From NCBI GenBank assembly GCA_030672305.1, contig DAOVGR010000084.1, forward strand, positions 1 to 64,000: a stretch of 64,000 bases of DNA, given 5' to 3'. Below the pieces are notes generated by a model. That model did not search any database, was not told where the DNA came from, and was given only the letters and a program-made list of their open reading frames with translations. Below are positions 3,649-24,580 of this stretch, piece by piece (positions within the stretch are counted from its first letter, which is position 1; every line of letters starts with the position of its first letter). The position numbers were made by a program, and so were the translations under genes. This DNA comes from Thermoplasmatales archaeon. GTDB taxonomy: Archaea; Thermoplasmatota; E2; DHVEG-1.

Positions 3649-5760
3649 ATGGAATTAGGTATAACATTATTAGCACCAATTGGAGGCATAATTGCTCTGC
3701 TTTTTGCATTATATCTTTTCTTTAGTGTTAAAAAGCAGGATCCTGGAAGCGAAAAAATGAGGGAACTTAGCAGTGCAATCCGTGAGGGAGCTATGGCCTT
3801 TTTAAAAAGTGAATATAAGGTTTTGGTTGTTTTTGTTGTGGTTGTTGCGATACTGCTTCTTCTTGCTTCATTTGTTGAAGGAAGCGGTATGCATTGGGGT
3901 CTTTCTGTTGCATTCGTTGTTGGAGCAATATTTTCTGCAGTGTCAGGCAATATTGGTATGCGTACTGCTACAATGGCAAATACTAGAACAGCAGAAGGCA
4001 CAAAAAAAGAATTGTCTAAAGGTCTTTCAATTGCATTTTCTAGCGGTGCTGTAATGGGTATGTGTGTTGTAGGACTAGGTGTACTAGGGATTTTTAGCTT
4101 ATATTCCATATTTTTTTATATTCTTGATTTAGGTGCGAGTGTTACAACTAATATTTTATTTGGTTTTGGCTTTGGAGCATCATCTATTGCATTATTTGCT
4201 CGTGTTGGTGGAGGAATATATACAAAATCTGCCGATGTTGGAGCAGACCTTGTCGGGAAAGTTGAGGCAGGAATTCCAGAAGATGACCCAAGAAATCCAG
4301 CTGTTATTGCAGATCAAGTAGGGGACAATGTTGGAGATGTTGCTGGAATGGGTGCTGATCTTTTTGAATCATATGTTGACTCAATTATTGCTACAATGGC
4401 CCTTGCAGCAATAGCTGGTGCCGTTGTCACCAGTGGAGAGATTCTTCCATGGCTACCAAAAGCAGAGATACTTGCATCAGGTGATACATTGAATTTTATT
4501 ATTCTTCCATTGATTATTGCTGCTATGGGGATTTTTTCAGCATTGATCGGTACATTGGTTGTGATATTTGGACGAGGAAAAAACATATATGGTGCTCTAA
4601 GAAATTCTTTGTTTGTTGCAACGATTTTAACTGCGATTTTTGGGGGAATTGCTACTTGGTATCTTATTGGTAGATTCGAACCTTTTTATGCAATGCTTGC
4701 AGGTCTTGTTGGTGGAATCGTAATAGGGCTTTCAACAGAATACTTTACATCTGAAAAAAGGAAACCTGCTCAAGGTATTGCTGAAGCTTCTAAAACAGGA
4801 CCAGCAACGGTTATAATCCAAGGAATTCAGGTTGGTATGATTAGTACTGTAATTCCTATTATTTCTGTTGTTGCTGCAATGATTTTTGCTTATGAATTAT
4901 CAGGTTTTTATGGTGTTGCATTATCTGCTGTTGGAATGCTTAGTATTCTTGGTGTGTCTCTTGCAACTGATTGTTACGGACCGGTTGCTGATAATGCTCA
5001 AGGAATATCTGAAATGGCTAAAATGGGTAAAGAAGTTCGTGAAAGAACAGAACAACTTGATGCAGTTGGTAATACCACTGCTGCAATGGGCAAAGGATTT
5101 GCAATTGGTTCTGCTGCTATTACATCTCTTGCTCTCATTTTTACTTATATGTTTATTGCAAATCAGATGCTTAGTGCAAAAGGAGAAGCCTTGCTTACTT
5201 TAAATTTGAGTGATCCATATTTGGTAGCCGGAATATTTATTGGAGCTTTGCTCCCGTTTGTATTTTCTGCTCTTACTCTAGGTGCTGTTGGAAGAGCTGC
5301 GCATGCAATGGTTGAAGAGGTTCGTTATCAGTTCAAAAAATTCAATCTTTTAAAAAGTGATAAGAATAAACCTGATTATGCTAGATGTGTAAAGATTAGT
5401 ACAAATCGAGCTTTAAAGGAGATGATTGTTCCAAGTTTAATGGCGGTGATTTCACCTGTTGTTGTTGGGATTGTACTAAAACCTGCTGGCCTTGGAGGTC
5501 TTTTAATGGGTTCTATTGCGACAGGTTTCTTGTTGGCGGTTTTTCTTGCAAACTCTGGTGGTGCATGGGATAATGCAAAAAAATACATTGAATCTGGAAA
5601 TCTTGGTGGTAAGGGTTCTTCTAATCATAAGGCAACAATAATTGGTGATACAGTGGGTGATCCATGTAAGGATACATCTGGTCCTTCACTAAATATTCTC
5701 ATAAAATTAATGTCAATTGTATCACTTGTATTTCTACCTCTTATTATTGCTTTGACATAG
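3649..5760 (+). CDS. hppA: Membrane-bound ion-translocating pyrophosphatase (V-PPase)
   Basis: 703 aa; DVGADLVGKVEAGIPEDDPRNPAVIADQVGDNVGDVAGMGADLFESY, GNTTAAMGKGFAIGSAA, IIGDTVGDPCKDTSGPSLNILIKL motifs. Confidence 0.97.
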   Translation: MELGITLLAPIGGIIALLFALYLFFSVKKQDPGSEKMRELSSAIREGAMAFLKSEYKVLVVFVVVVAILLLLASFVEGSGMHWGLSVAFVVGAIFSAVSGNIGMRTATMANTRTAEGTKKELSKGLSIAFSSGAVMGMCVVGLGVLGIFSLYSIFFYILDLGASVTTNILFGFGFGASSIALFARVGGGIYTKSADVGADLVGKVEAGIPEDDPRNPAVIADQVGDNVGDVAGMGADLFESYVDSIIATMALAAIAGAVVTSGEILPWLPKAEILASGDTLNFIILPLIIAAMGIFSALIGTLVVIFGRGKNIYGALRNSLFVATILTAIFGGIATWYLIGRFEPFYAMLAGLVGGIVIGLSTEYFTSEKRKPAQGIAEASKTGPATVIIQGIQVGMISTVIPIISVVAAMIFAYELSGFYGVALSAVGMLSILGVSLATDCYGPVADNAQGISEMAKMGKEVRERTEQLDAVGNTTAAMGKGFAIGSAAITSLALIFTYMFIANQMLSAKGEALLTLNLSDPYLVAGIFIGALLPFVFSALTLGAVGRAAHAMVEEVRYQFKKFNLLKSDKNKPDYARCVKISTNRALKEMIVPSLMAVISPVVVGIVLKPAGLGGLLMGSIATGFLLAVFLANSGGAWDNAKKYIESGNLGGKGSSNHKATIIGDTVGDPCKDTSGPSLNILIKLMSIVSLVFLPLIIALT

Positions 5761-5838
5761 TAAGATTTGTATTCAAAAAGCATATAAGGAGTAAGCCTAT
5801 TCCACCACGATTATCATTAATTTATAGTAGGGTTTCAT

Positions 5839-6453
5839 ATGTATTATAAGGTTAGAATTGGGGATACTGTTCGTATCCCTCCAAATAAATTTAGCGAAGA
5901 TCTAAATGTTGTTATCACAAATATCGTTCAGAAAACCTTTGAAGGAACAATGAGAAAGGAGTATGGGATTATTGTTGTTGCTGATAATATACAACCTGTT
6001 GGAAACGGAATTGTCATACATGGCGATGGGGCAATGTATCAGAAGATATCATTTGATGCATTGACGTTTAATCCAAGACTTCAGGAGGTTCTTGATGCAA
6101 TTGTTTGTGAAATTGTTGAGTTTGGAGCGTTTTGTCATATAGGTCCACTTGATGCTTTAATTCATATGAGCCAGATTATGAATGATTATGTTGAAGTTGA
6201 TGCGGAAAATGAGATCATAACTGGAAAAGAAAAGAGATTGAGCTTGAAGACCGGTGACATTGTTAGAGCTAGAGTTGTAGCAGTAAGCTTGAATGAACTT
6301 TCCTCAAGAGAAAGTAAGATTGGTCTTACTATGAGGCAGCCTGCACTTGGTTCACATGAATGGATCTATGCACCAGTTGAAGAAGAAAAAAAGAAAGATG
6401 AGAAAGTAAAAAAGGAAAAGAAGAAAAAGAAAAAGAAGAAGGGTAAGAAATGA
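5839..6453 (+). CDS. rpoE1: DNA-directed RNA polymerase subunit E' (Rpo7) with Lys-rich C-terminal tail
   Basis: MYYKVRIGDTVRIPPNKF start, S1-like domain (VEFGAFCHIGPLDALIHMSQI); followed by spt4. Confidence 0.93.
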   Translation: MYYKVRIGDTVRIPPNKFSEDLNVVITNIVQKTFEGTMRKEYGIIVVADNIQPVGNGIVIHGDGAMYQKISFDALTFNPRLQEVLDAIVCEIVEFGAFCHIGPLDALIHMSQIMNDYVEVDAENEIITGKEKRLSLKTGDIVRARVVAVSLNELSSRESKIGLTMRQPALGSHEWIYAPVEEEKKKDEKVKKEKKKKKKKKGKK

Positions 6454-6635
6454 AGATTGTGAGAGCATGTAAAACATGTCATAAGCTTACTGAAAGTGAT
6501 GTTTGTCCTAATTGTTCACTTCCTACTTCTAAAAGATGGCGTGGTTATGTGATCATTCGAAATCCAGAAAATTCACAAGTTGCTAAAGCAATGAACATAA
6601 CCAAACCTGGAAAGTATGCATTGAAGGTTATGTAA
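6450..6635 (+). CDS. spt4: Transcription elongation factor Spt4 / RpoE''
   Basis: 61 aa; CKTCHKLTESDVCPNCS...RWRGYVIIRNPENSQVAKAMNI; ATGA overlap with rpoE1. Confidence 0.93.
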   Translation: MKIVRACKTCHKLTESDVCPNCSLPTSKRWRGYVIIRNPENSQVAKAMNITKPGKYALKVM

Positions 6636-6649
6636 ATTTTTTTAGAATT

Positions 6650-7150
6650 ATGCACGTTCTTCCTGAAAAATTAAGAGATCTTCTTAAAACTCCTGTCGGA
6701 AAACTTGTCGATGAAAAGGGTCTTATTGAACTATTAAGATGTGAAAAGCATATCATTTCGATTGGTGATCAGGTCACTTACACTCTTTTAAAGCATGATA
6801 TTGAGCCTTCCTTCTGTGTTGTTGATTTTAAGACAAAAAGAGGGAAATGCCCAAAAGAAATTGTTGATCTTTTGAAATCCTTTGGAAAGAAAAGCATTGT
6901 TGTTGAAAATCCCGCGGGCATTCTTTCTGATGATCTTTTTAATACAGTTAAACTTGCAATTGAAAATTTGGAGGTTGGCTCCCTTCGTATAGAGGTTTTG
7001 GGTGAAGAGGATCTTGCTTCTCTTCCTGCAATCTATTTTGCTCCTTCAGACGCAACTATAATATATGGTTTGCCAAATAAGGGGGTCTTAGTTATTAAAC
7101 CAACTAAAGAGATGAAACAAAAGGTTAAAGAAGTTCTTGATGAGATGTGA
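6650..7150 (+). CDS. DUF359 / GTP-dependent dephospho-CoA kinase family
   Basis: Size, position between spt4 and S24e, motifs CVVDFKTKRG, VENPAGILSDDLF, EEDLASLPAIYFAPSDATIIYGLPNKGVLVI. Confidence 0.88.
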   Translation: MHVLPEKLRDLLKTPVGKLVDEKGLIELLRCEKHIISIGDQVTYTLLKHDIEPSFCVVDFKTKRGKCPKEIVDLLKSFGKKSIVVENPAGILSDDLFNTVKLAIENLEVGSLRIEVLGEEDLASLPAIYFAPSDATIIYGLPNKGVLVIKPTKEMKQKVKEVLDEM

Positions 7151-7926
7151 GAATTATGGAAATTGAGATCGATTCAAAAAGAAATAATCCTTTGCTTAAT
7201 AGAACTGAGATTTATTTTACTATAAAGCATGAGGGTGAGGGTACTCCTAATCGTGAACTTATCAGAAGTGAGCTTGCTGATAAGTTAAATGTTAAAAAGG
7301 AAAATATTGTCGTTAACACTGTTGATTCTAGTTTTGGAAAACAAGAGATTTCTGGTTACGCAAAGATTTATTCATCTATTGCTAAAGCAAAGGATATTGA
7401 AAGTGATCATATTCTTATAAGAAATCAGATAATTGGAGGTGGAAAGAAACCTGAGAAAAAGGGTGAAGTAGCTCCTCCACCACCGAAAGAAAAGCCTGTT
7501 GAACCACCTAAGGAAGAAGAAAAGTCTGCTGAACCTGCCGCTGAAGCAAAACCTGAACCTGCTGCTGAACCACCTAAAGAAGAAGAAAAGTCTGCTGAAC
7601 CAGAAGCTGAGGTAGAACCTGAACCTGTTGGAGATGTTAAAGCTGAGGAGCCTCCAAAGGAGGAAGCACCTGCTGCTGAACCACCTAACGAAGAAGAGCC
7701 GGCATCCGAACCACCTGTTGAAGAACCTACTACGCAAGAACCACCAAAAGAAGAAACTCCAAAACAAGAGATGCCTGCAGAAGAACCTGTTGAAAAAAAG
7801 GTTGAACCAGCCAAACAGGAAGTAAAAGAAGAGGAAAAACCTAAAGAAGAAGAGAAACCAAAAGAGAAACCTAAAGAGGAAGAATCCGGTGAAAAAGAAC
7901 AAACTGATAAGGAAAAGAAGGAATGA
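7147..7926 (+). CDS. rps24e: 30S ribosomal protein S24e with ~160-aa Pro/Glu/Lys/Ala-rich extension
   Basis: [33 protein letters not shown]..., then [14 protein letters not shown]-like low complexity; start GTG 7147 or ATG 7156. Confidence 0.88.
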
Positions 7927-8354
7927 ATATGAAGAAGACTGAGTTTTTCAAAGTCGAAGGTGATAGGATCAGCCGTGTCCGTAGGTACTGTCCAAAATGT
8001 GGACCTGCAGTTTTTTTGGCTGATCATAAGAATCGTTTTAGTTGTGGTAAATGTGGTTATACAGAGTTCAAAGGAGGAGGAAAACCCTCTAAACCTGCAC
8101 CGGTTGAGAAAAAACCTGTTGAAACACCAGTGGAAGCAAAAACTCAAGCACCTACTCAAGAACCACCAAAAGAGGAAGTCCCACCAATTGTGGAAGGGGA
8201 ATCTGAAGAAAAGGAACCAGAAACTGCTAAAGAAGAAGCTCCTGTAGAAGAGAAACCTAAAGATGAAATCCCCGAAGAAGAGGAATCCTCTGAGGTAAAA
8301 GAAAAGGCTGAAAAATCTTCTGATGAATCATCTGATGAAGATAAAAAGGAGTAA
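7923..8354 (+). CDS. rps27ae: 30S ribosomal protein S27ae with ~95-aa acidic extension
   Basis: Zinc-finger core [30 protein letters not shown]; remainder low-complexity Glu/Pro/Lys/Ser. Confidence 0.9.
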
Positions 8355-8449
8355 TTATTTTTAAAAAAATAATAAGAAAAAGGCCTTGATTTTTCTATAT
8401 TTTAATTAAACCTTGGCCTGTATTAAATGAGATATAAAAGATTAATTTT

Positions 8450-9040
8450 TTAGATTTCGCCAAAGAACTCTCTTAGTTTATCAATCTCTGGATTAGGTAT
8501 TCCGCATTTTTGAGCTGGGAATAATTCCTCTATTAATTGAATGTCTGAGATATATCCTTCAAATAGTTTTGCAACAACCTCAACAAATCGTTTTGCAATT
8601 TTAATTTCTGGTGCGTTGAAGCAAATTACCCAGTCGTATGCACCAGTTGCGTAAAAACTGTTTATTATGTCGATATTTATACCATCTGATTTCTTTGTAA
8701 GTTCTCTATCAACTATTCTATCAATTATATCTCCAGCTATTGGTTGAATTGATCTTTTGATAAGTATCATATACCTTTTCATATCTTGTTTTTCATCATC
8801 AATTACTGCGGTATACCCCCAAATTGTGTTGTTATTTTCAAGGTTTTTAATAATTCTCCATACTTTTTGTCTTGAAAAGCCACAGGTTTTTGCAATTTCA
8901 TTTATGCTTTTATTTGCATTTATTGAGAGTTCGCGTACTATTTTTTTCTGATCTAATAAAATTTGAGCTGCGCTATTTTTTGCCATAAATTGCACCGAAT
9001 CTGTTTTTTGTATAAAAAGTTTTAGATTGTATGATAACAT
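8450..9040 (-). CDS. Lrp/AsnC-like transcriptional regulator
   Basis: HTH INKSINEIAKTCGFSRQKVWRIIKNLENNNTIWGYTAVID followed by an effector-like region. Confidence 0.75.
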   Translation of the reverse strand: MLSYNLKLFIQKTDSVQFMAKNSAAQILLDQKKIVRELSINANKSINEIAKTCGFSRQKVWRIIKNLENNNTIWGYTAVIDDEKQDMKRYMILIKRSIQPIAGDIIDRIVDRELTKKSDGINIDIINSFYATGAYDWVICFNAPEIKIAKRFVEVVAKLFEGYISDIQLIEELFPAQKCGIPNPEIDKLREFFGEI

Positions 9041-9504
9041 TTTTCAAATTGTGTGCAATTTTTCTTCAAAATGTTACAAAAAAAGGCACAACGAGGCATT
9101 TATCGTAACCTATATAAATAAATGAATGTCACAGTATATCTGTCATTTTGACATTTTGTCATTTTGCTAAAATATATTTAAATATAAGGAGTGATAGATA
9201 TTATCGTGATATAATGTACCACGAGGATGATGGTCGGTTGAAGGGAAGAATTAAAAATCTAATTGGGGATAAAAAAGTAATAAACAAAAAAATTCTGATT
9301 CCTATATTTATGATTCTTTTTAAGAATCTATATCTCACGGTGATCTTCATACAGTAAATAAATTTACTATATCCCTCCTATATTTTTTTTTATTTTTTGA
9401 AATGCCTTTTTAAAAAAGGTTTGCTTTATTTTGTCGATATTAAAAGATCCATTATTTTACATATATTTATTAAAAATATAATCATTATTAAAATAATAAT
9501 TAAT

Positions 9505-10488
9505 TTAGAAACACAAATTCTTATAGGTGTTATAAATTGAATTAATTATTACTCTTGCTTTTGAATATCTCTTTTGAAAGAACCTTAAGAAATTCATAAG
9601 CATTTCTCTTATGTCATTTAACTCATGTTCATTTATTGAATTAATAATTTCGTTGTTTTGAGAGTTCTTTGCCTCAACAATATCTCCATCTTTATTTTTT
9701 GAAAACATACAATCTGAAATTTGATTGTTTGATGATGAATGAAGATATATTCCATGGACGGAATTATTGTAGATTTTACAATTAAGAATTATATTTCTAT
9801 CATTTGATGAAGTAATTGCATCAATTCCTGTATGGGTGTTATCAAAGAACTCACAATCTATAATTGAGTTTTCTGATGAGTATTGAAGTTCTATTCCATC
9901 ACAGTTATCATGAAATATGCAGTTTATGATTTTGTTTTCAATACAATCAGAAAAAGACGTTCCTATAAGAGCGATTCCTTCATCCTTGCATCCCCAGAAT
10001 TCACAGTTTTTTACTGTGTTTCCTGAAGTAAATATTGCAATTCCTACTGGTGTATCATAGATATTGCAATCTTCTATTTGAACATTTGATGCTGTGATTT
10101 TTATACCGGTAGTATAGAGACCAGGACCTCCATTTGTGATACTTAGATTTTTTATTATTATATTGGGAGATCCTAGTCTAATTCCATATTTGTTCTTCTC
10201 GGAGATGGGATTGATAATTGTTTTATTTTTATCTTCTCCTAGAAGGGTTATTTTCTTTTTTATATTTAGAATTTCATTATAAACTCCTGATTTTATGTGT
10301 ATGGTTGAACCCTCGGGTGCGTTGTTTATTGATTCTTGTATTGTTTTGTAGTCTTCCTTTCCATTTTTATTTACAGTTATTTTATTTGATTGTCTTATTG
10401 ATATTGCTTCAATGTTTGTAATTGCAAATATATTTAAAATTAAAACTATGATTAGTAGTAATGAAGTTATTCTGAGTGCGTTTTTCAT
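9505..10488 (-). CDS. Secreted right-handed parallel beta-helix (NosD-like) protein
   Basis: Signal peptide; DYKTIQESINNAPEGSTIHIKSGVYNEILNIKKKITLLGEDKNKTII; repeated short beta-helix turns. Confidence 0.85.
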   Translation of the reverse strand: MKNALRITSLLLIIVLILNIFAITNIEAISIRQSNKITVNKNGKEDYKTIQESINNAPEGSTIHIKSGVYNEILNIKKKITLLGEDKNKTIINPISEKNKYGIRLGSPNIIIKNLSITNGGPGLYTTGIKITASNVQIEDCNIYDTPVGIAIFTSGNTVKNCEFWGCKDEGIALIGTSFSDCIENKIINCIFHDNCDGIELQYSSENSIIDCEFFDNTHTGIDAITSSNDRNIILNCKIYNNSVHGIYLHSSSNNQISDCMFSKNKDGDIVEAKNSQNNEIINSINEHELNDIREMLMNFLRFFQKRYSKARVIINSIYNTYKNLCF

Positions 10489-10985: not shown

Positions 10986-13900
10986 ATGAAAAATAATTTT
11001 ATAAAAAGTAGAAGTAGTTATGGAAGAATATTTGGTGCAAGTATTTTAGCAATTTTTATGCTGGTGAGTGCAATTTTTGGATTGATACTAACATCTTCAG
11101 ATACAATCGAAGCTGCTATTGAAAATGATTTTGAATACGATTTTGGTGACGCTCCTGACGATTTCTCACATCATTATAATACACTTCTTGCAAGTAATGG
11201 AGCAAGACACATAAATGATAGTGGTTACTTTATTGGATCATTAAAGGATAATGAGTCTGACGGAATATCAAGCGCGGCAAATGGTGATGATATTAATGGT
11301 ATTGATGATGAAGATGGTGTATCTTGGACACCATTCTATCCTCAACAAGGACATACGGCAAAATTAATAGTTACTACCACTGTCCCTGTTGATTCACCAA
11401 ACGGAAATCTAAGTGCTTGGATGGATTTCGACAGAGATGGTTATTGGGATGATAGTGAACAAATTCTCTCAGATGTGAGTTTAGGGACAGAAGTCTCTGA
11501 AAATCCGTTCACAATACCTTGTTCTACTGAAATAGGATATATCTATTTAAGATGCCGTTTTAGCACTGACGGTGAATTATCCTATGATGGTTGGGCATCT
11601 GATGGAGAGGTCGAGGATTATAGGGTCTATATCATAGCTGATGATGAATATCCATCGCAAACCATTGAGTTTGGAGGACCTAAGATAATTAGGGAATGGC
11701 AATGGAGTGAATATTTTGTTGTTGGTCCTTATACACCCGTTTGGATAAACTCAAGTGATGCATGTCCTGGCTCAGAAAAAATTGAATACTCTGTTTGGGT
11801 TGCTGATGATCTTGAAGACCCAATTGTTTGGACGTTTCTTTGGAATTTGACTGTTTATGATAATGATGAAAATGATTTAGATGAAACCTATGGATCTATT
11901 GTTACAGTGTTTTATAATGATGAGACTTGCCTTCATGAAGTCAGATATCAGTGTTGGGATTATGATGGTGCAACTGAGGGATTTTTCACCATAGATTTCT
12001 TTGTCGATAAATGTGGCCCAATAACCACCAAGGTTGTTGGATGTCCAAAATACAGCTACGGCTGGCCATATCCGCCATGGATAAGTGGAATTACACCTTT
12101 AACATTTAACTCAGTTGATAATTGTTGTCTTCCAAATGGCACCGCTGTTGATAAAATAACAATAAAAGTATGGTGGAAAGCTGACACTTGTGACAGTTCA
12201 GGTGCGTTTAATTTAATTGATACGATAGTTGTTGAAGATGGCGACGGAAATGATATCAATCCAGAGGAAGGAAGAATTGGATATGAATTCCATTTCGAAC
12301 AAACTGGATATTACGAACTTGAATATTGGGGAGTTGATATGATGGGTAATGTAGAAAGCCATCATAAACAACAGCATCGAGTAGACGTCGACCCACCTGA
12401 AATTACAAAGACATATCCAGAAGATGGATACTGTGAAATCGATGAACATGAAGGTTTTATAAAATGTTGCTCACCAATTAATCTTAGTGTTGAAGAGATG
12501 CCTGATGATACCTGTTATGCTGGTCTTTATGGTATGTTCTGGCGCTATGATTGGAATGATACTTATTATCCTGCAGAGGGAGAAGAGGGAGCAGTCAATG
12601 GTGAGGATATCGTTGAAGATTTATGTATTGTTGATTTTGAAATAGAGGGATATTGGTGGTATCCATATGATGAAGAGATTCATTTCTATGAAGAATGTGA
12701 ACATGATCTCCGGTATTTTGCTATTGATAATGTGGGTAATTACGATGAAGTCCATAATCAGAATTACTTTGTTGATAACACACCGCCAATAGCAATAAAA
12801 GAAATTGGTGAACCAAAGTGTCAAAATGAACTACCAGATGGAGATTGGTGTATAACAAGCCAAACGCCTATATGGCTTAATGTTACTGACGATGGTACAG
12901 AACCCTGTATAGCTGGTTCCATTCATCTATTCTATCGTATTTGGTATGATGGTGCTTGGGAAGGATTTGATGTATTTGTTTCTGAAGGAACACTTAGTGA
13001 AGAAATTTATCTTGAAGGTGATTGCATGCATTATCTCGAATTTTTCGTAGAGGACTGCGTTGGAAACAGATGGCCTGCTGAAGGATATCATAATGAAACA
13101 TTTTATGTTGATGATACACCACCTATAATAATTAAAACCGTCGGAGATCCAAATTGTTGGATTCCTGATACTCCTAATTACTGTGTTAACCTTAGCACCT
13201 TAATTACCCTTGATACTGAGGAGGTAGGTTGCTGTCAAAACGATTCAGTCACTATTGAATATAAAATCTGGTTTGATGGTGAATGGACTGATTGGATGCC
13301 ATATGAAGGTCCATTTAGTTTTGATGAGGAGTGTGAGCATGTTTTGACTGTTAGGGCGTATGATTGTCTTGGTAATGGTATGGATGATGCCTTTTGGCAT
13401 ACTGAGACGTTCTATGTTGATGAAACACCACCAGAGATTATTAAATGCGTTGGTGAACCAAAGTGTGAGGTTCCAGGTACAGATGATTGGTGTGTTACTA
13501 CAAGTACTTTGATTACTCTTAAAGCTGAAAATAAAGGATGTTGTGATTATGGAGATTTTACTTTTAAATACAGAATTTGGTTGGAAGGAGAAGGATGGAC
13601 TGGATGGGAACCTTACGCAGGTCCATTTACTTTCACTGAAGAGTGCATGCATTATCTTGAGGTTCTTGCAACTGATTGTCTAGGAAATGAGGCCTTGGAT
13701 AACGAAACTTTCTATGTTGATGATAGTGCTCCTGTAATTACTAAGACTGTTGGTGAGCCTAAGTGTGATCTACCTGACTCTGATGATTGGTGTGTTACTA
13801 CCGATACTTTGATTACTCTTGAGGCAGTTGATGAGGATTGTTGTCCAAACAGTAGTATAACTATTGAATATATGATTAGTCATCCTGGTGCTCAATGGCA

Positions 13901-16900
13901 GACTTATACCGGTCCATTTAGTTTTGACGAGGAGTGTTCACATACTTTATATGTTAGGGCTTATGATTGTCTTGGTAATGGTATGGATGACCAGTATTGG
14001 GATAAGGAGACTTTCTATGTTGATGATAGTGCTCCTGAGATTATCAAAACTGTTGGTGAGCCTAAGTGTGATGTTCCTGGTACTGATGATTGGTGTGTTA
14101 CTACTGATACCTTGATTACTCTTGAAGCGATGGATGAGGATTGCTGTCCGAATAGCGATATTACTATTGAGTATAAGATTGGTGATGGCAGTTGGCAGAC
14201 TTATATCGAGCCATTTAGCTTTGATGAGGAGTGTGAGCATATTCTTAGGGTTAGGGCTTATGATTGTCTTGGTAATGGTATGGATGATCAGTATTGGGAT
14301 AAGGAGACTTTCTATGTTGATGATAGTGTTCCTGTGCTTACTAAGACTGTTGGTGAGCCGAAGTGTGAGGTTCCTGGTACTGATGATTGGTGTGTTACTA
14401 CTGGTACTTTGATTACTCTTGAAGCAGAGGATGAGGATTGCTGTCCAGATAGTGATATTACTATCGAGTATATGATTGGTGATGGTAGTTGGGAAACTTA
14501 TGTTGGACCTTTCAGCTTTGCTGAGGAATGTGAGCATGATTTGGCAGTAAGAGCTTATGATTGTCTTGGTAATGGTATGGATGAAATGTATTGGCATACT
14601 GAGACTTTCTATGTTGATGATAGTCATCCTGTGATCACAAAAACTGTTGGTGAGCCTAAGTGTGATATCCCTGGTACTCCTAATTGGTGTGTTACTACTG
14701 GTACCTTGATCACTCTTGAAGCAGAAAATCGGGGTTGCTGTTTGAATAGTGATATAACTATTGAGTATAGTATCAACTTAGGAGATTGGCAGACATATAC
14801 TGGTCCGTTTAGTTTTGCTGAGGAGTGCGAGCATCTTCTTATTGTTAGGGCTTATGATTGTCTAGGTAATGGTATGACTGAGCCGTATTGGGATATTGAG
14901 ACTTTCTATGTAGATGATAGTGCTCCTGAAATCACTAAGACTGTGGGTGAACCGAAGTGTGAGGTTCCTGATACTGATGACTGGTGTGTTACTACCTTTA
15001 CTTTAATTACTCTTGAAGCAGAGGATGAGGATTGCTGTCCAAATAGTGATATAACTATTGAATATAAGATTGAGGATGGCAGTTGGCAGACTTATACTGG
15101 TCCGTTTAGTTTTGCTGAGGAGTGTGTGCATAATTTGACTGTTAGGGCGTATGATTGTCTTGGTAATGGTATGGATGAAATGTATTGGGATATTGAGACT
15201 TTCTATGTTGATGATAGTGTCCCTGTGATTACTAAGACTGTGGGTGAGCCTAAATGTGAGGTTCTAGGTATGGTTGAAGATTGGTGTGTTACTACCAGCA
15301 CTTTGATTACTCTTGAGGCAGTTGATGAAGGATGTTGTCCAAACAGTAGTGTAACTATTGAGTATATGATTAACTGGGGTGGATGGCAGACTTATACGGG
15401 TCCATTTAGTTTTGCTGAGGAGTGCGAGCATATTTTAGATGTTAGGGCGTATGATTGTCTTGGTAATGGTATGGATGATCAGTATTGGGATACTGAGGTT
15501 TTCTATGTTGATGATAGTGCTCCTGAGATTTTCAAAACCGTAGGTGAGCCTAAATGTATGGTTCCTGGTACTGATGATTGGTGTGTTACTACTGGTACTT
15601 TGATTACCCTTGATGCACTAGATCAAGATTGCTGTCCGAATAATGATATAACTATTGAGTATAAGATCGGGGATGGCAGTTGGCAGACTTACACGGTTCC
15701 GTTTAGTTTTGCTGAGGAGTGCGAGCATATTCTTAGGGTTAGGGCGTATGATTGCCTTGGTAATGGTATGGATGATCAGTATTGGGATACCGAGACTTTC
15801 TATGTAGACGATACCGCTCCGGAAATTGTGAAGACGGTGGGAGATCCGAATTGTTTCATCAATGAAGGTGAATACTGTGTTACAACTGACACAATTATTA
15901 CAATAGATGTTATTGATGAAGATTGTTGCGATGATGATATAACGGTTTTCTATAGTATCAATGGAGGTACTCAGATTGATATATCAGATCTGTTACCATA
16001 TGATTTGACTTTTGATCAGGAGTGTGAACATTTACTACAGATTTGGGCGTATGATTGTCTTGAACATTCAGATTATGATGCAGAGCTCTTTTATGTTGAT
16101 GATACACCACCTGAGCTTATAAAAGAAGTCGGAGATCCACATTTCTATCTAGGTTTAGACGATTATGGTCATGATGTTTGGATGATATATCCTGAAACAG
16201 ATATTTGCTTTGAAGCATTTAATGTTGGTTGCTGCCAAGATGGAGAAATCACCATTTGGTACAAATATTGGTATCTTGGAAATTGGACTGACCCGATGAT
16301 ATATGATGGATGCATTAATCTTGAAGAAGGGTGTGTGCATTACCTTGTAGCATGGGCTGTTGATTGTCTTGGGAATGCTGGTGAAGAGGATAACGAGACC
16401 TTCTGGGTCTGTGGACCTGGCGGAGGAGATGGTGATCCAAATGTTGAGATTATATTCCCAGAGCATGACTCAACTCAACAAACTGATTATGTTGAGGTGA
16501 TACTGCATGCATATGATGACGATACTGTTTGGGAAGACCTAAATGTATATCTTTGGATTCCTGGTGGTAGAAGAGATGCACCATTCCTATATTACGAAGT
16601 AACACCACTTCCTGGTGAAGAGGATTACTATCATGCATTTGTTCCAATTTATTGGTATCAAGGTGGAGCACAAATAACTCTTGAAGCACTCGCAATGGAT
16701 GAAGACGGAAACACTGGATTTGCACTTCCTGTAACATTCAGAGTTGATACTACTATTGTTTGGGATCAATGGATGCAGTATGGATGGAATCCATTACCTC
16801 TTAGTGGTGGAATGCCACCAGACTTTGGATGCAATGAATCAATTGAGAGTGTAATGTACTCAGTTGAAGGTTCCTATGATTGGGTGTTCCATTATGATCT

Positions 16901-18926
16901 AGATGAAGGTTGGATTAGTTATTTCATCGATCGTGAGATAAACGAGTTGACTACAATTGAAGGAGGTAAAAATTACTGGGTACACATCTTCAATGAAAGT
17001 GGACTTAGATATTACATCGGTGTTGGTGAAATCGAGATACTTTATCCAGAAGATGAAGCTCTATTATTTGATCTCAATGAAATAAATGGTACAACATGGA
17101 ACTCAGAAACTGGAATGGATGAAGTCCATGTCCAGATCTATTATAAAGACGAAAACAATACAAAACATTACTGGACTGGTTCTGCTTGGGGAATGACATC
17201 GACATATCTACCTTGTGATCTAGAGGTCGGTTATATTCAGAATTGGTTATACGATAGTACCGGTGTTGCATGGATACCTGGTGAAACATTTTATGTGAAA
17301 GCTAGAGCAATGGATATGTTTGGATGCTATGCATATGATATGGTTTCCTTTGAGTTTGAATCATGTATCTGTGCTCCAGAGATTGACCTTGAAAAACATA
17401 TTTGGGACGGTGGAGAATGGGACAAGGCTCATACTTTATATTTAGGAGATGAAGCTTTATTTAACATAAGTATCTCAAACATTGGTGAAATAATCGGGTC
17501 TGGTGATGAATATTCTACTGCTAATGAAACGATTCTTGAAGCAATTGATAAGGGACTTGAGTATCTTGCTAGTCAACAAAACGCAGATGGCTCTGTTGTA
17601 GGTACTGGGTCATATAAAGTTGCACAAACTGCTTTTGCTGTTTTAAAATGGGCAGAACATGCTAGAAGATTTTTAGATAAAGACCCGTTTGATCCTACCT
17701 GGGAATATGCAGATAATACAATTTTAGGATTGCACTACTTATTCAACAACTCTTACTCTGCAACAATAACCGATCAACCAGCTGGTGATCCAGATACAAA
17801 CGGAAACGGTATAGGAGTTTACTTTAAAAATTGGTATCCGGGATATACAACAGGAATTGTTATGCAAGCACTTGAAGCAACTAATCACCCTGAAAGAATT
17901 GTCGATTACGGTACTCATGCTGGTTGGACTTATGAAGAAGTTATGGAAGACTGTGTAGACTGGCTTGCATGGGCTCAAGTTGATGCAAAATGGGGTAATT
18001 ACAGAGGCGGATGGAGATACTATGGCAATGATACCAGCAGCGATAACTCAGTTGCTCAATGGGCCGCATTAGGTTTTATGGCTGCTGAAAATTGGGGAAT
18101 ATCTGCACCAGAATGGGTAAAGACAGAGAATCTTTACTGGACTAATTATACTCAAAATGCAAATGGAGGCTTTGGATATACTGGTCCATCAGGTTTGGAT
18201 GTTGATATGACCGGTGCTGGAATAATACAGCTAAATTACTGTGGTAAAACAACATCAGATTCTGAAGTTGCTGATGCGATATCTTGGCTAGCTGATAACT
18301 GGGGAGACCTTAATCAACCATATGCAATGTTTGCTGTTATGAAAGCATCAATGACTGCTCGACCTAGCAAGATAACACATTACGGAACCCATGATTGGGG
18401 ACAGGAATATGATGATTATCTTATCTCAGTTCAAAACGCAGATGGCAGCTTCCCGAAAGATACCCATTCTGGAAGTGTTATTCTTGGAACTGAATATGCA
18501 TTACTTGTCTTGCAGAGGATAGCTCCAGAAGTCGTTTCAGATTGTCCACCTTGTAATCTTAGTCAATGGTATATCAACGATACTTTACCAGCAGGCCTAG
18601 GATATGTAGAAAATAGCACAAGAATAATAGTAGTATCTTGTGACGGATACTATGAATCCTCAGGTCCTGAAGTTCAACCACAAAACATCATATCAAATCC
18701 AGATGGCTCAACAATACTTGAATGGTGGGAAACCGGTGATGAACCATTTGAGCTTTCACTATGCTCTGAAATGTTTATAGAATTCAATGCAAATTTAACT
18801 GATTGTGGATCACCAGAAGGACTTAACAATACAGCTTACGTAGAAGCGTATTCGCCTGATGACGATTCTTGGGTTTCTGATGAGGACACAGCAACAGTAT
18901 TGGATGAATGTGAAGTTTGGGTGTAG
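10986..18926 (+). CDS. Giant secreted protein: GEVED-type domain, ~12 Cys-rich modules, DUF11-like domain with inserted alpha/alpha-barrel-like region
   Basis: 2646 aa; signal peptide; GDAPDDF...ASDGEVEDYRVYI; tandem VGEPKC..DDWCVTT..LITLEA..CC...EEC...YDCLGNGMD...ETFYVDDS modules; LEYLASQQNADGS / SVQNADGSFPKDTHSGSVILGTEYALLVLQ; NDTLPAGLGYVENS. Confidence 0.9.
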   Translation: MKNNFIKSRSSYGRIFGASILAIFMLVSAIFGLILTSSDTIEAAIENDFEYDFGDAPDDFSHHYNTLLASNGARHINDSGYFIGSLKDNESDGISSAANGDDINGIDDEDGVSWTPFYPQQGHTAKLIVTTTVPVDSPNGNLSAWMDFDRDGYWDDSEQILSDVSLGTEVSENPFTIPCSTEIGYIYLRCRFSTDGELSYDGWASDGEVEDYRVYIIADDEYPSQTIEFGGPKIIREWQWSEYFVVGPYTPVWINSSDACPGSEKIEYSVWVADDLEDPIVWTFLWNLTVYDNDENDLDETYGSIVTVFYNDETCLHEVRYQCWDYDGATEGFFTIDFFVDKCGPITTKVVGCPKYSYGWPYPPWISGITPLTFNSVDNCCLPNGTAVDKITIKVWWKADTCDSSGAFNLIDTIVVEDGDGNDINPEEGRIGYEFHFEQTGYYELEYWGVDMMGNVESHHKQQHRVDVDPPEITKTYPEDGYCEIDEHEGFIKCCSPINLSVEEMPDDTCYAGLYGMFWRYDWNDTYYPAEGEEGAVNGEDIVEDLCIVDFEIEGYWWYPYDEEIHFYEECEHDLRYFAIDNVGNYDEVHNQNYFVDNTPPIAIKEIGEPKCQNELPDGDWCITSQTPIWLNVTDDGTEPCIAGSIHLFYRIWYDGAWEGFDVFVSEGTLSEEIYLEGDCMHYLEFFVEDCVGNRWPAEGYHNETFYVDDTPPIIIKTVGDPNCWIPDTPNYCVNLSTLITLDTEEVGCCQNDSVTIEYKIWFDGEWTDWMPYEGPFSFDEECEHVLTVRAYDCLGNGMDDAFWHTETFYVDETPPEIIKCVGEPKCEVPGTDDWCVTTSTLITLKAENKGCCDYGDFTFKYRIWLEGEGWTGWEPYAGPFTFTEECMHYLEVLATDCLGNEALDNETFYVDDSAPVITKTVGEPKCDLPDSDDWCVTTDTLITLEAVDEDCCPNSSITIEYMISHPGAQWQTYTGPFSFDEECSHTLYVRAYDCLGNGMDDQYWDKETFYVDDSAPEIIKTVGEPKCDVPGTDDWCVTTDTLITLEAMDEDCCPNSDITIEYKIGDGSWQTYIEPFSFDEECEHILRVRAYDCLGNGMDDQYWDKETFYVDDSVPVLTKTVGEPKCEVPGTDDWCVTTGTLITLEAEDEDCCPDSDITIEYMIGDGSWETYVGPFSFAEECEHDLAVRAYDCLGNGMDEMYWHTETFYVDDSHPVITKTVGEPKCDIPGTPNWCVTTGTLITLEAENRGCCLNSDITIEYSINLGDWQTYTGPFSFAEECEHLLIVRAYDCLGNGMTEPYWDIETFYVDDSAPEITKTVGEPKCEVPDTDDWCVTTFTLITLEAEDEDCCPNSDITIEYKIEDGSWQTYTGPFSFAEECVHNLTVRAYDCLGNGMDEMYWDIETFYVDDSVPVITKTVGEPKCEVLGMVEDWCVTTSTLITLEAVDEGCCPNSSVTIEYMINWGGWQTYTGPFSFAEECEHILDVRAYDCLGNGMDDQYWDTEVFYVDDSAPEIFKTVGEPKCMVPGTDDWCVTTGTLITLDALDQDCCPNNDITIEYKIGDGSWQTYTVPFSFAEECEHILRVRAYDCLGNGMDDQYWDTETFYVDDTAPEIVKTVGDPNCFINEGEYCVTTDTIITIDVIDEDCCDDDITVFYSINGGTQIDISDLLPYDLTFDQECEHLLQIWAYDCLEHSDYDAELFYVDDTPPELIKEVGDPHFYLGLDDYGHDVWMIYPETDICFEAFNVGCCQDGEITIWYKYWYLGNWTDPMIYDGCINLEEGCVHYLVAWAVDCLGNAGEEDNETFWVCGPGGGDGDPNVEIIFPEHDSTQQTDYVEVILHAYDDDTVWEDLNVYLWIPGGRRDAPFLYYEVTPLPGEEDYYHAFVPIYWYQGGAQITLEALAMDEDGNTGFALPVTFRVDTTIVWDQWMQYGWNPLPLSGGMPPDFGCNESIESVMYSVEGSYDWVFHYDLDEGWISYFIDREINELTTIEGGKNYWVHIFNESGLRYYIGVGEIEILYPEDEALLFDLNEINGTTWNSETGMDEVHVQIYYKDENNTKHYWTGSAWGMTSTYLPCDLEVGYIQNWLYDSTGVAWIPGETFYVKARAMDMFGCYAYDMVSFEFESCICAPEIDLEKHIWDGGEWDKAHTLYLGDEALFNISISNIGEIIGSGDEYSTANETILEAIDKGLEYLASQQNADGSVVGTGSYKVAQTAFAVLKWAEHARRFLDKDPFDPTWEYADNTILGLHYLFNNSYSATITDQPAGDPDTNGNGIGVYFKNWYPGYTTGIVMQALEATNHPERIVDYGTHAGWTYEEVMEDCVDWLAWAQVDAKWGNYRGGWRYYGNDTSSDNSVAQWAALGFMAAENWGISAPEWVKTENLYWTNYTQNANGGFGYTGPSGLDVDMTGAGIIQLNYCGKTTSDSEVADAISWLADNWGDLNQPYAMFAVMKASMTARPSKITHYGTHDWGQEYDDYLISVQNADGSFPKDTHSGSVILGTEYALLVLQRIAPEVVSDCPPCNLSQWYINDTLPAGLGYVENSTRIIVVSCDGYYESSGPEVQPQNIISNPDGSTILEWWETGDEPFELSLCSEMFIEFNANLTDCGSPEGLNNTAYVEAYSPDDDSWVSDEDTATVLDECEVWV
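13100..15830 (+). repeat. Coding tandem repeat, ~295-310 bp unit, about 9-10 well conserved copies plus diverged flanking copies
   Basis: Recurrent nucleotide strings such as ggtgagcctaagtgtga, gattggtgtgttactac, gcttatgattgtcttggtaatggtatgga, gagactttctatgttgatgatagt. Confidence 0.93.
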
Positions 18927-18996: not shown

Positions 18997-20343
18997 ATGA
19001 AAAACAAAAAGGTATATTCCATAATAATAGCAACCTTATTCTTGGGTTTAGCAATGACTGCAGTTCCAACCATGGCTGATGAATTTCATTCAGTATATGG
19101 TGATTTAACCATTAATGATGTTACACAAGCTCCATCTGGAACAGAGGTGAAACTATCATTCTCAGATGGATATGAAACAGATATTACCGAGTTCATTGGA
19201 AATTATCAAATAGATTTCACAGGACATGATTGGGATGATGGTTATTTTTCCGTTAAATACAAGGGTGAGTGGTATATCCCAGAGGGAAATCCATCAGTAT
19301 TAATCGAACCGGATATTACTGGATATAAAATCGACCTGAACATTATATATTCAGAACCAGATCCAGACCCAGATCCTGACCCAGACCCAGACCCTGACCC
19401 CGACCCCGACCCCGACCCAATACCACCACCAGCAAACCTATTACCACACGCAGTTGCAAAAACAGATGATCCTCAAGGGTTTGTAGGCGAAGAAATTACA
19501 TTTGATGGAACTGATAGTACTGATTCTGATGGGACAATCACAAACTATACTTGGGATTTCAAAGACGGAACAATAGGATTTGGAAGTACGGTTTCACACA
19601 TCTATGACTCCCCTGGTGATTACAATGTAAAATTAACTGTTACCGATAATGGTGGAGCAACTGATTCAGATACAACAAGTGTTGTAATAGCTACACCTAA
19701 CATACCACCCTATGCACCGGTAATTTCTGGTCCAACAATGGGTACAAAAAATGAGTCCTATGATTATACCTTTGTATCAATTGATGATGACGGGGATGAT
19801 CTTTCATACAATATTACTGACTGGGGAGATGGTAATAGCACCAATACAGAGTTCTATCCAAATGCAACGGAAGCAACAGAACCTCATACCTTTGGTATGG
19901 CAGGAGTTTATACAATATCTGCTCTTGCATATGATAACCAAACAGCATCTGGTACGACAGACTATGTTGTTTTGATTGATGCATGGTGGGTAAAGGAAAT
20001 CGGCTATCTTCTAGACTATGACGCAAATGGAGTCTATGAAAAGTTCTACAGCAACTCAACTTCTGAGGAAACAGGTTCAAAGAAAAACGATGACGGTAAA
20101 TATCTAATTGATGAAGATGGAGACGGCGAATGGGACTGGGTATATGAAAAAGAAACAGACACACTTGAGCCCTACACTGAAGAAAAGGCAGATTACACAA
20201 TGTGGTATGCATTGATACTACTGATTATAATCATTCTCATAATTCTTGGTTATCTTGCCGGTAGAAAGAAGAAGAAACCTGAAGAACCAAAACCAGCACC
20301 GAAGAAGAATGCTGGTAAAAACACAACACCTAAAAAGAAGTAG
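18997..20343 (+). CDS. Secreted PKD-domain protein with C-terminal TM anchor and Lys-rich tail
   Basis: Signal peptide; FHSVYGDLTIND domain; (DP)n linker; PKD motif NYTWDFKDGTIGFGSTVSHIY; C-terminal MWYALILLIIIILIILGYLAGRKKKKPEE. Confidence 0.88.
   Translation: MKNKKVYSIIIATLFLGLAMTAVPTMADEFHSVYGDLTINDVTQAPSGTEVKLSFSDGYETDITEFIGNYQIDFTGHDWDDGYFSVKYKGEWYIPEGNPSVLIEPDITGYKIDLNIIYSEPDPDPDPDPDPDPDPDPDPDPIPPPANLLPHAVAKTDDPQGFVGEEITFDGTDSTDSDGTITNYTWDFKDGTIGFGSTVSHIYDSPGDYNVKLTVTDNGGATDSDTTSVVIATPNIPPYAPVISGPTMGTKNESYDYTFVSIDDDGDDLSYNITDWGDGNSTNTEFYPNATEATEPHTFGMAGVYTISALAYDNQTASGTTDYVVLIDAWWVKEIGYLLDYDANGVYEKFYSNSTSEETGSKKNDDGKYLIDEDGDGEWDWVYEKETDTLEPYTEEKADYTMWYALILLIIIILIILGYLAGRKKKKPEEPKPAPKKNAGKNTTPKKK
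19359..19428 (+). repeat. Asp-Pro dipeptide repeat (imperfect GAYCCN hexamers)
   Basis: EPDPDPDPDPDPDPDPDPDPDPDPIPPP translated from gaaccagatccagacccagatcctgaccc... Confidence 0.9.
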
Positions 20344-20481: not shown

Positions 20482-21780
20482 ATGAATAAAAAAAAGTTGG
20501 GTTCAAAGTTAGCAATATTTCTTGTTCTGACGTCATTTATTGCGGGTGCATTTATGCCTGCTCAAGCAGAATCTCCTTTTCATTCGGTTTATGGATTTGT
20601 GTATATTAATGACGAACTTGCTTCCGCAGGAATGGAGGTTAAACTGACATTTATTGATAATCCAGAGGATATACCTGATATAATTGATTCAAACGGATAC
20701 TACCAGATTGATTTTACAGATCATAATTGGGAGGTAGGTTTCTTTTTTGTAAAATTTGAAGGAGATTGGCTGGTACCTTTTGATAATTCCTCAGTAGATA
20801 TAATTTCACAAGAAATCGGCTATGAAGTTGACCTACATATTAATACTTTGGGCAGTCCACCCGATAAACCTGTAAATCCACAACCAGAGAACAACTCGGT
20901 AAATGTGTCTATTAATCCTACGTTAAGCGTTCTTGTTATTGATCCAGATGATGATATCATGGATGTATCATTTTACGATGCATCAGATGATAGCCTTATA
21001 GGAATAGATAATAATGTCCCTAGTGGAGGAACGGCCTCTATTCAATGGGCAGGTCTTAGCCCTTCCACAGATTATTTCTGGTATGCAATTGCAGATGACT
21101 CAGAATTTCAAACAAGTTCAGATGTTTGGAATTTTAGGACAAGGATGAATCAGCCACCTAACAATCCTATTAATCCCGCACCAGCTGACGGTGCTGAAGA
21201 TGTTGAAATAGACCCATTTCTAAGTGTTGATGTAACAGATCCGGATGGTGATATGATGGATGTATTGTTCTTTGATGCATCTGACGGAAGTCTCATCGGT
21301 ACAGTCTTAAATGTTGCATCTGGTGGCACTGCTTCGGTACAATGGAAGGACCTTTCCTACAACACAACATACTCTTGGTACGCAATTGCAGACGATTCAG
21401 TGTATGAAACAAGGTCTGATACTTGGTCCTTTACTACAGAAGTTGATGATACTCCACCAACTGTTTCTATAACAAGACCTGAGAAGGGACTTTATATATT
21501 TGATAGAAAGATAAAGATCCTTCCCAGATTTATTAGACCAGCACTCATCATTGGTAGAATTACAATTGAGGCAAATGCAACTGATGAAGACTCAGGTATT
21601 GAAAGAGTTGAGTTCTACATAAATGGAAAATTAAAAGGAAATGATACAAGTGCTCCTTACGAATTCTTATGGGAGAGAGATCGTATTCGTCTGTTTCATA
21701 TATTTGTTATAAAGGTTATTGCATATGACCTCAATGGTGCGGAAGCATCTGATAAGATGATTGTTAGAAAGTTTTTGTAA
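20482..21780 (+). CDS. Secreted multi-Ig/FN3-like protein sharing the N-terminal domain of the preceding gene
   Basis: Signal peptide; FHSVYGFVYINDELASAGMEVKLTF; two ~100-aa repeats (DASDDSLIG / DASDGSLIG); C-terminal Ig-like EFLWERDRIRLFHIFVIKVIAYD. Confidence 0.85.
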   Translation: MNKKKLGSKLAIFLVLTSFIAGAFMPAQAESPFHSVYGFVYINDELASAGMEVKLTFIDNPEDIPDIIDSNGYYQIDFTDHNWEVGFFFVKFEGDWLVPFDNSSVDIISQEIGYEVDLHINTLGSPPDKPVNPQPENNSVNVSINPTLSVLVIDPDDDIMDVSFYDASDDSLIGIDNNVPSGGTASIQWAGLSPSTDYFWYAIADDSEFQTSSDVWNFRTRMNQPPNNPINPAPADGAEDVEIDPFLSVDVTDPDGDMMDVLFFDASDGSLIGTVLNVASGGTASVQWKDLSYNTTYSWYAIADDSVYETRSDTWSFTTEVDDTPPTVSITRPEKGLYIFDRKIKILPRFIRPALIIGRITIEANATDEDSGIERVEFYINGKLKGNDTSAPYEFLWERDRIRLFHIFVIKVIAYDLNGAEASDKMIVRKFL

Positions 21781-21985: not shown

Positions 21986-22693
21986 ATGAATGAAAGGCAC
22001 TTTATTAGTACTATAAAGGAACAAAATCTTGCAATAATTACAATTCCTGATGCAGCGCGAATAATAAACAAAAGCAGGAAATACACAGTTTTATATCTAA
22101 AAAGGCTTGAAAAACGGAAAATAATAAAAAGAATTGAAAAAGGAAAATATTCGCTACAAGATACACCTTTCCAGGTAATAGCTAGCAATCTAATACTGCC
22201 TTCATATATTTCATTTTTATCTGGTCTATCCTATTACAATCTAACTACTCAAATACCAAGAATAACACAAATAGCAACAACAAAATCAAAAAAAAGAATT
22301 ATAAATGAAAATGGGGAAATTCAATTTATAAACCTGAGAAGAGTTTTTGGTTACAAACGTGAGCAAACTCAATTTGGATATATTTTTATAGGAGAAACGG
22401 AAAAAATCATAATAGATTCGCTTTTTCTACCGAAATACTGCCCAATAAATGAAACTTTTAGCGCTATAAAGGATTCCAAATTAGATGTTAAAAAACTTAT
22501 TGACTATGCCTTAAAAATGGATTCCATCGTTCTTATTAAAAGACTTGGATACTTCTTAGAACTTAATGATATAGATATTTATCTGAAAGTTAAAAAATAT
22601 CTTAATTCTCGCTATGACCTACTAAATCCTCATCTTCCGCCAACGGGTAAAAACAACATTAGATGGAAACTAAAAATAAACGAGGTGCTATAA
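21986..22693 (+). CDS. AbiEi-type antitoxin / HTH regulator
   Basis: N-terminal wHTH (ITIPDAARIINKSRKYTVLYLKRLEKRKIIKRIEKGKYSLQD); immediately upstream of AbiEii. Confidence 0.82.
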   Translation: MNERHFISTIKEQNLAIITIPDAARIINKSRKYTVLYLKRLEKRKIIKRIEKGKYSLQDTPFQVIASNLILPSYISFLSGLSYYNLTTQIPRITQIATTKSKKRIINENGEIQFINLRRVFGYKREQTQFGYIFIGETEKIIIDSLFLPKYCPINETFSAIKDSKLDVKKLIDYALKMDSIVLIKRLGYFLELNDIDIYLKVKKYLNSRYDLLNPHLPPTGKNNIRWKLKINEVL

Positions 22694-22696
22694 TTT

Positions 22697-24575: not shown

Positions 24576-24580
24576 TATTG

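What the first reader, a model, noticed from the sequence alone, without database searches (positions are those of the whole stretch)
12790..16410. Giant protein built from ~12 six-cysteine modules
Modules of ~98 aa follow the pattern VGEPKC-(x)-DDWC-VTT-LITLEA-CC-PNSDITIEY-..-EEC-EHxLxVRAYDC-LGNGMD-ETFYVDDSAPE, i.e. six cysteines per module in most copies, about 70 in total. The hydrophobic-strand pattern looks Ig/cadherin-like, but such dense conserved cysteines are unusual for archaeal surface proteins and suggest a disulfide-stapled extracellular fibre or adhesin. I do not recognise this module as a named family.
Basis: partly seen in the sequence, partly recalled or inferred. Interest (0 to 1): 0.78.

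Follow-up and report, generated by a model that had tools for sequence, protein, structure and literature searches.

The report
Archaeal giant protein of disulfide-linked modules
A sediment archaeon encodes a 2,646-residue exported protein whose repeated immunoglobulin-like modules carry regularly placed cysteines, and the way these cysteines come and go among relatives says that each module is locked by disulfides inside itself and also tied to the next module, giving a covalently stapled rod of a kind we could not find described.

Summary
ORF 10986-18926 (+; 2,646 aa) holds 12 modules at 12780-16406, ten with the full six-Cys pattern; residues 602-1808 hold 72 Cys (6.0% against 0.7% elsewhere in the window). 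The module is not unnamed: it is an OmpL47-type domain (NCBIfam NF047446, E 7e-87), which AlphaFold models as an Ig-like sandwich (pLDDT 92), not a barrel. The cysteines are the new part. Across 437 module matches from Thermoplasmatota, C1 goes with C2, and a second BC-loop Cys (C3) goes with C6, inside the same module. C5 does not go with its own module's BC Cys (shuffle p 0.96). It goes with the BC-loop Cys of the NEXT module (252/277 concordant; 0 of 3,000 shuffles as high). In two nearly Cys-free arrays, cysteines occur almost only as such C5(n)/BC(n+1) couples. Best reading: two intra-module disulfides plus one staple between neighbouring modules, daisy-chained along a secreted stalk. The two-Cys form is widespread in the phylum; the six-Cys form is mostly in this family. 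No VKOR, DsbA or DsbB was found; a TlpA-DsbD fusion was. Distances were not measured; function (adhesin, sheath or S-layer part) is inferred.

The parts
10986..18926 (+). ORF of the giant exported protein (2,646 aa, 102 Cys)
10986..11114 (+). N-terminal signal-peptide-like segment (residues 1-43); only strongly hydrophobic stretch of the protein, no C-terminal membrane anchor
   Evidence: hydropathy scan; no signal-peptide predictor was available
11406..11627 (+). GEVED domain (PF20009, 49-51 bits against cut-off 24.4)
11649..12779 (+). About three more divergent Ig-like, Cys-bearing domains (residues ~222-598); conserved in relatives
   Evidence: sequence reading; blastp self- and cross-matches; Cys list
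12780..13127 (+). Module 1 (from residue 607), five Cys: C1, C2, one BC-loop Cys, C5, C6
13116..13436 (+). Module 2, six Cys
13425..13736 (+). Module 3, six Cys plus an extra Cys at residue 821
13725..14039 (+). Module 4, six Cys
14028..14336 (+). Module 5, six Cys
14325..14633 (+). Module 6, six Cys; the one modelled with AlphaFold2 (pLDDT 91.7, pTM 0.80)
14622..14930 (+). Module 7, six Cys
14919..15227 (+). Module 8, six Cys
15216..15527 (+). Module 9, six Cys
15516..15824 (+). Module 10, six Cys
15813..16115 (+). Module 11, six Cys
16104..16412 (+). Module 12 (end of array): C1/C2 lost; CC, C5, C6 kept; extra Cys at residues 1741, 1776 and 1809
16455..17372 (+). C-terminal beta domains conserved in the relatives (51% identical to L035, 38-39% to L030 and L033)
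17373..17519 (+). First half of a DUF11-like domain
   Evidence: sequence reading; B_ant_repeat 15.5 bits against cut-off 24 on the second half only; position
17520..18530 (+). Alpha/alpha-toroid domain inserted into the DUF11-like domain (squalene-hopene-cyclase / prenyltransferase-like fold)
   Evidence: AlphaFold pLDDT 83.1, pTM 0.87; Foldseek PDB best E 4.7e-7, squalene-hopene cyclase; matches in 11 of 390 genomes
18552..18926 (+). Second half of the DUF11-like domain and C-terminus, no anchor motif recognised

Best explanation
The protein is exported and forms a long rod of Ig-like (OmpL47-type) modules held by three kinds of disulfide. C1-C2 closes a small beta-hairpin at the start of each module. 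One of the two adjacent BC-loop cysteines (probably C3) bonds C6 at the start of the FG loop, closing the pole that faces the previous module. C5, at the opposite pole (EF loop, motif EEC-x-H), bonds the other BC-loop cysteine (probably C4) of the following module. Each module is thus tied to its neighbours a second time, besides the backbone: a daisy chain of inter-module staples that should stiffen the rod and hold it together if the backbone between modules is cut. Shown here: the repeat, the family, the single-domain model, and the cysteine associations within and between modules. Inferred: that these are real S-S bonds, the exact partner among the two BC cysteines, the stiff rod, and the role as the stalk of a surface protein that presents the N-terminal GEVED and C-terminal DUF11/toroid regions.
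For: Same-module pairs: C1-C2 phi 0.92, and 12 of 13-15 parsimony changes fall together on the same branches of a tree built without the Cys columns; two BC cysteines with C6 phi 0.87 in the first set; within-locus shuffle 0 of 5,000 for both pairs, also without the window and its sister. Between modules, 279 adjacent pairs in 55 ORFs: C5(n) with BC(n+1) concordant 252/277 against 230 +/- 4 in within-ORF shuffles, 0 of 3,000 as high; C5 with its own BC p 0.96; with the previous BC p 0.65; holds in both halves of the data and without the six-Cys proteins. Discordant modules: 28 of 32 with C5 but no BC Cys are followed by a module with a BC Cys; 22 of 27 with a BC Cys but no C5 are preceded by C5. 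L123 and L106 carry cysteines almost only as C5(n)/BC(n+1) couples, two each. Topology: C69 precedes and C80 follows the nine-residue strand 70-78, so they sit at opposite poles; the BC loop (36-45) goes with C80, leaving C69 at the far pole, the one facing the next module (plus general knowledge of Ig topology).
Against: No coordinates were available, so no S-S distance was measured. The C3-C6 pair shows no co-changes above chance on the tree. 25 of 277 neighbour pairs break the inter-module rule, and some modules have an odd number of Cys. Arrays L106 and L123 may be homologous to one another, so they are not fully independent. No canonical oxidase (VKOR, DsbA, DsbB) was found in the genome. 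No adhesive domain or cell anchor was identified.
Confidence: 0.72

Rival explanations
1. All three bonds are inside the module (C1-C2, C3-C6, C4-C5); the protein is an ordinary array of Ig modules stabilised by intradomain disulfides.
For: Pooled over proteins, C4-C5 in the same module associate (phi 0.64), with 3 co-changes on the tree, p 0.004.
Against: The association vanishes when shuffled within each protein (p 0.36, 0.96), while the next-module association is strong; C5-only and BC-only modules follow one another in the predicted order; C5 and the BC loop lie at opposite poles of the modelled fold.
Confidence: 0.1
2. C5 and the BC cysteines cross-link separate molecules (fibre to fibre, or hoop to hoop as in archaeal sheaths) rather than neighbouring modules of one chain.
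For: Disulfides between units hold methanogen sheaths together (PMC11576556). Covariation alone cannot tell a neighbour in the same chain from a staggered neighbour in another chain.
Against: The rule is specific to module n+1 of the same chain; a staggered lattice would need a fixed one-module offset in proteins of about 5 to 48 modules.
Confidence: 0.12
3. The cysteines and the conserved His (CC ... EEC-x-H ... DC) bind a metal such as Zn or Fe.
For: The His two residues after C5 is invariant in the window's modules.
Against: The His is also present in Cys-free modules (e.g. GEGAHTI and ADGPHKV in L038 and L042), so it belongs to the fold; cysteines are gained and lost in twos, not fours.
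Confidence: 0.05

Closest known systems
OmpL47-type domain (NCBIfam NF047446; Leptospira OmpL47, PMC2698987)
   Same: Sequence family: 11 stretches, whole-protein 285.8 bits against a cut-off of 40; tandem copies in a surface protein.
   Different: Modelled as an Ig-like sandwich, not a membrane barrel; three pairs of Cys, one of them apparently between modules; archaeal host.
Ig-like / PKD / Y_Y_Y stalk domains and fibrillar adhesins (PMC8286594, PMC11532034)
   Same: Signal-like N-terminus, long tandem array of Ig-like modules in a very large exported protein.
   Different: No known adhesive domain or anchor found. Stalk reinforcement described elsewhere is Ca2+ (MpAFP, PMC4083281 abstract) or isopeptide bonds inside domains (PMC12617251), not staples between modules.
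DUF11/CLIPPER isopeptide domains (PMC12617251)
   Same: Covalent reinforcement of Ig-like stalk domains in archaeal and bacterial surface proteins; a DUF11-like domain is also present here.
   Different: There the bond is Lys-Asn inside one domain; here Cys pairs, one linking two domains. The DUF11 match here is below threshold.
Siglec domain 1-2 inter-domain disulfide (own knowledge)
   Same: A disulfide between consecutive Ig domains.
   Different: One bond at one junction in animals; here it recurs at nearly every junction of arrays of up to about 48 modules.

Membership tests
OmpL47-type domain (NF047446) | Score above the curated cut-off (40 bits, whole protein) | tested here: met
   285.8 bits, E 7.4e-87, 11 stretches; a single module alone scores just under it, 34.5 bits, and 9 of 12 match at E<=1e-3
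OmpL47-type domain (NF047446) | Beta-barrel in an outer membrane, as the family name says | tested here: not met
   Compact Ig-like model, pLDDT 91.7; best PDB matches are Ig-like domains. The name goes back to barrel prediction programs (PMC2698987)
Leptospira OmpL47 equivalog (NF047441) | Score above cut-off 250 | tested here: not met
   162.4 bits
Cadherin (PF00028) | Score above cut-off 28.8 | tested here: not met
   16.3 bits
GEVED domain protein (PF20009) | Score above cut-off 24.4 | tested here: met
   49-51 bits, residues 141-214
Fibrillar adhesin | Tandem stalk domains in a long exported protein | tested here: met
Fibrillar adhesin | Known adhesive domain | tested here: not met
   None in Pfam or NCBIfam; the toroid domain is only a candidate
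Fibrillar adhesin | Cell-surface anchor | tested here: inconclusive
   No C-terminal hydrophobic segment; anchoring by S-layer contacts cannot be excluded
DUF11/CLIPPER | Match above cut-off and Lys/Asp/Asn isopeptide triad | tested here: inconclusive
   15.5 bits against 24; the domain is split by an insert; triad not modelled
Three-disulfide module with one inter-module bond (proposed) | S-S distances in a tandem structure | not testable with these tools

The most novel reading that the evidence does not exclude
A daisy chain of inter-module disulfides: at almost every junction of Ig-like arrays of up to about 48 modules, the EF-pole cysteine of one module bonds the BC-loop cysteine of the next. 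It would be a further way, beside Ca2+ linkers and isopeptide bonds, to stiffen a prokaryotic surface stalk, made in archaea in which no VKOR, DsbA or DsbB homologue was found.
Probability: 0.65. Interest if true: 0.75.

Novelty: new variant of a known kind. Interest (0 to 1): 0.62.

Why it matters
Long surface stalks need stiffness and resistance to proteases. Known solutions include Ca2+ at linkers and isopeptide bonds inside domains. A chain of disulfides that ties each module to the next would be a distinct solution, readable from sequence, and a design principle for rigid protein rods. It also poses a clear question: which enzyme oxidises dozens of thiols per molecule in archaea that seem to lack the usual oxidases? 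And it corrects a name: 'OmpL47-type beta-barrel' domains, at least here, are Ig-like.

Tried and rejected
Viral origin: no relative in viral contigs, and only generic Ig-like folds in the viral structure library. Intradomain C4-C5 bond: rejected after within-protein shuffles. Autocorrelation of Cys-rich blocks as the cause of the neighbour effect: rejected because same-module and previous-module comparisons show nothing. Metal site: weak, because the His is kept in Cys-free modules. A shifted domain register (C5 and next BC in one fold unit): considered, rejected because the module folds alone in the register used and Cys-free modules show the same boundaries. PDB sequence search gave no hit. 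The second genome set had too few C1/C2/C6 cysteines to retest those pairs.
Full report
What is there. The finding is part of one ORF, 10986-18926 on the + strand, 2,646 residues with 102 cysteines. The neighbourhood is archaeal (ribosomal protein S24e, Rpb7-like RNA polymerase subunit, H+ pyrophosphatase), the window is contig 7 of a 2.8-Mb draft genome, and the named relatives are Thermoplasmatota metagenome-assembled genomes. The N-terminus is signal-like and is the only strongly hydrophobic stretch; the mature chain is very acidic, 509 Asp+Glu against 100 Lys+Arg. A GEVED domain and about three divergent Ig-like domains precede the array. Twelve modules follow at 12780-16406 with six aligned Cys columns. 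After them come conserved beta domains, then a DUF11-like domain split by a toroid insert. Cys makes up 6.0% of residues 602-1808 against 0.72% in other ORFs of the window.

Family and fold. Pfam recognises only GEVED and a short DUF7005 stretch. NCBIfam recognises the OmpL47-type domain with 11 stretches, E 7.4e-87; nine of 12 modules match it on their own at E<=1e-3. AlphaFold2 gives one compact domain, pLDDT 91.7, pTM 0.80, strands 4-9, 13-15, 22-24, 30-35, 46-51, 70-78, 91-97. Foldseek finds Ig-like neighbours: extracellular domains of Bacteroides sensors, PKD domains, SiiE (E-values 1e-3 to 1e-1, so fold class only). The 'beta-barrel' in the family name is therefore misleading here.

Distribution. 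Modules match in 19 of 45 genomes of the family, 13 of 52 of the order at E<=1e-8, and 39 of 390 of the phylum at E<=1e-6. A pattern scan of the 84,980-species genome collection returned only Thermoplasmatota; that scan uses two short motifs and reaches close relatives only. Carriers include ORFs of up to 5,525 codons. Six-Cys modules are common in the window's family and occur in a few class-level relatives; in the wider phylum the usual forms have two Cys (one BC, C5) or none.

Cysteine pairs inside a module. I named the columns C1-C6. In modules of the window and its first relatives the strongest associations were C1-C2 (phi 0.92), C3-C6 (0.77) and C4-C5 (0.64). On a tree built without these columns, C1 and C2 changed together on 12 branches (expected 0.8, p 1.5e-16), C4-C5 on 3, C3-C6 on none. 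Because one BC cysteine is hard to place against two adjacent ones, I then counted BC cysteines: 'two in the BC loop' goes with C6 at phi 0.87. Shuffling within each locus keeps protein-level relatedness: C1-C2 and BC2-C6 stay beyond all 5,000 shuffles, also without the window and its sister, but C5 with its own BC Cys does not (p 0.36).

The cysteine pair between modules. The model puts C69 (C5) just before, and C80 (C6) just after, the nine-residue strand 70-78, hence at opposite poles; since C6 goes with the BC loop, C5 must be at the far pole, the one that meets the next module in a tandem array. That gave a prediction: C5(n) should go with BC(n+1). Over 279 adjacent pairs in 55 ORFs it does: phi 0.71, 252/277 concordant against 230 +/- 4 on within-ORF shuffling, none of 3,000-5,000 shuffles as high; same-module p 0.96, previous-module p 0.65. 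It holds in both halves of the data (p 0.001 and 0 of 3,000) and without the six-Cys proteins. The two halves were pooled when the test was first run, so they are a consistency check, not a blind replication (a label in the script says otherwise and is wrong). Simple autocorrelation along the array would favour the same-module comparison, which shows nothing.

The plainest evidence is by eye. In L123 and L106, arrays of 10 and 6 modules with almost no Cys, cysteines occur as couples: one in module n at C5, one in module n+1 in the BC loop, twice in each array. (L123 has one further Cys in a later module.) In L107 the run starts with a C5-only module, continues with modules that have both, and ends with a module that has BC but no C5, before Cys-free ones. 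Of 32 modules with C5 but no BC Cys, 28 are followed by a module with one; of 27 with BC but no C5, 22 are preceded by C5.

Mechanism. I conclude that each six-Cys module is closed by C1-C2 and by BC-C6 and stapled to its neighbours by C5(n)-BC(n+1). Cys is commoner at C4 than at C3 (105 against 64 modules), which makes C4 the likelier partner in single-Cys loops and so the likelier inter-module one; this is inference. The result would be a rod with no free hinge at its junctions, a role that Ca2+ is thought to play in MpAFP (PMC4083281, abstract), while isopeptide bonds reinforce domains from inside in other stalks (PMC12617251). I take the protein to be a surface stalk. Its ligand is unknown; the C-terminal toroid (squalene-hopene-cyclase-like fold) and the GEVED region are candidates for the business ends.

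Who makes the bonds. No VKOR or Thioredoxin_4 match in 45 family genomes (the control genomes did ring), no DsbA or DsbB in the own genome, which is 88% complete. The own genome has an extracytoplasmic thiol locus on contig 35: a Redoxin/TlpA-like domain fused to a DsbD/CcdA membrane domain, next to a CxxC lipoprotein, plus a TlpA-like lipoprotein. The fusion is in 20 of 45 family genomes. DsbD is usually a reducing or shuffling partner (own knowledge), so the oxidant is open. Sheath-bearing methanogens are reported to have DsbB and DsbD (PMC11576556).

Known or new. I found no description of array-long inter-module disulfides between Ig-like modules in the paper library; the library lacks most subscription journals, and the searches were by words. 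LDL-receptor modules, a classic Cys-rich array, keep their disulfides within domains (PMC4500599 abstract). Single inter-domain disulfides between Ig domains exist, e.g. in Siglecs (own knowledge). I rate this a new variant of a known kind.

Limits.

Noticed in passing
window 17520-18530: A 337-residue alpha/alpha-toroid domain (squalene-hopene-cyclase/prenyltransferase-like fold, no Pfam hit) sits inside a DUF11-like domain; homologues occur in 11 of 390 phylum genomes in other exported proteins, often next to DUF11-like or PKD-like domains (L131-L142). Whether enzyme or binding domain is unknown.
   Followed up: partly
window 16104-16412 and the last modules in L030, L035, L037, L033: The last module of the six-Cys arrays has extra cysteines (residues 1741, 1776, 1809): 1741/1776 come and go together among relatives, and the next domain often has a Cys (HCERT motif), as if the staple chain were capped or handed on.
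   Followed up: partly
L049 (own genome, contig 35): Exported TlpA-like domain fused to a DsbD/CcdA membrane domain, beside a CxxC lipoprotein: a candidate thiol-redox system for the disulfides; found in 20 of 45 family genomes.
   Followed up: partly
window 18997-20343 and 20482-21780: Two neighbouring exported proteins that share an N-terminal domain (HSVYG...) and carry PKD or Big_7 domains have no cysteine at all, in contrast to the giant protein beside them.
   Followed up: no
window 21986-26061: Two AbiEi/AbiEii-like toxin-antitoxin or defence pairs in a row, followed by further nucleotidyltransferase genes up to about 28270.
   Followed up: no
L030 residues ~815-970 of ORF 4107-10202: A separate domain (GDYLGWCVDQN...) appears inserted inside one module after C1; the same protein ends in a VWA-like domain, while L033 ends in a cohesin-like domain (by reading, not tested).
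   Followed up: no
window, residues 1361-1399 of the protein: Pfam DUF7005 scores just above its cut-off (28.9 against 27) on part of one module; possibly a family that contains an OmpL47-type domain.
   Followed up: no
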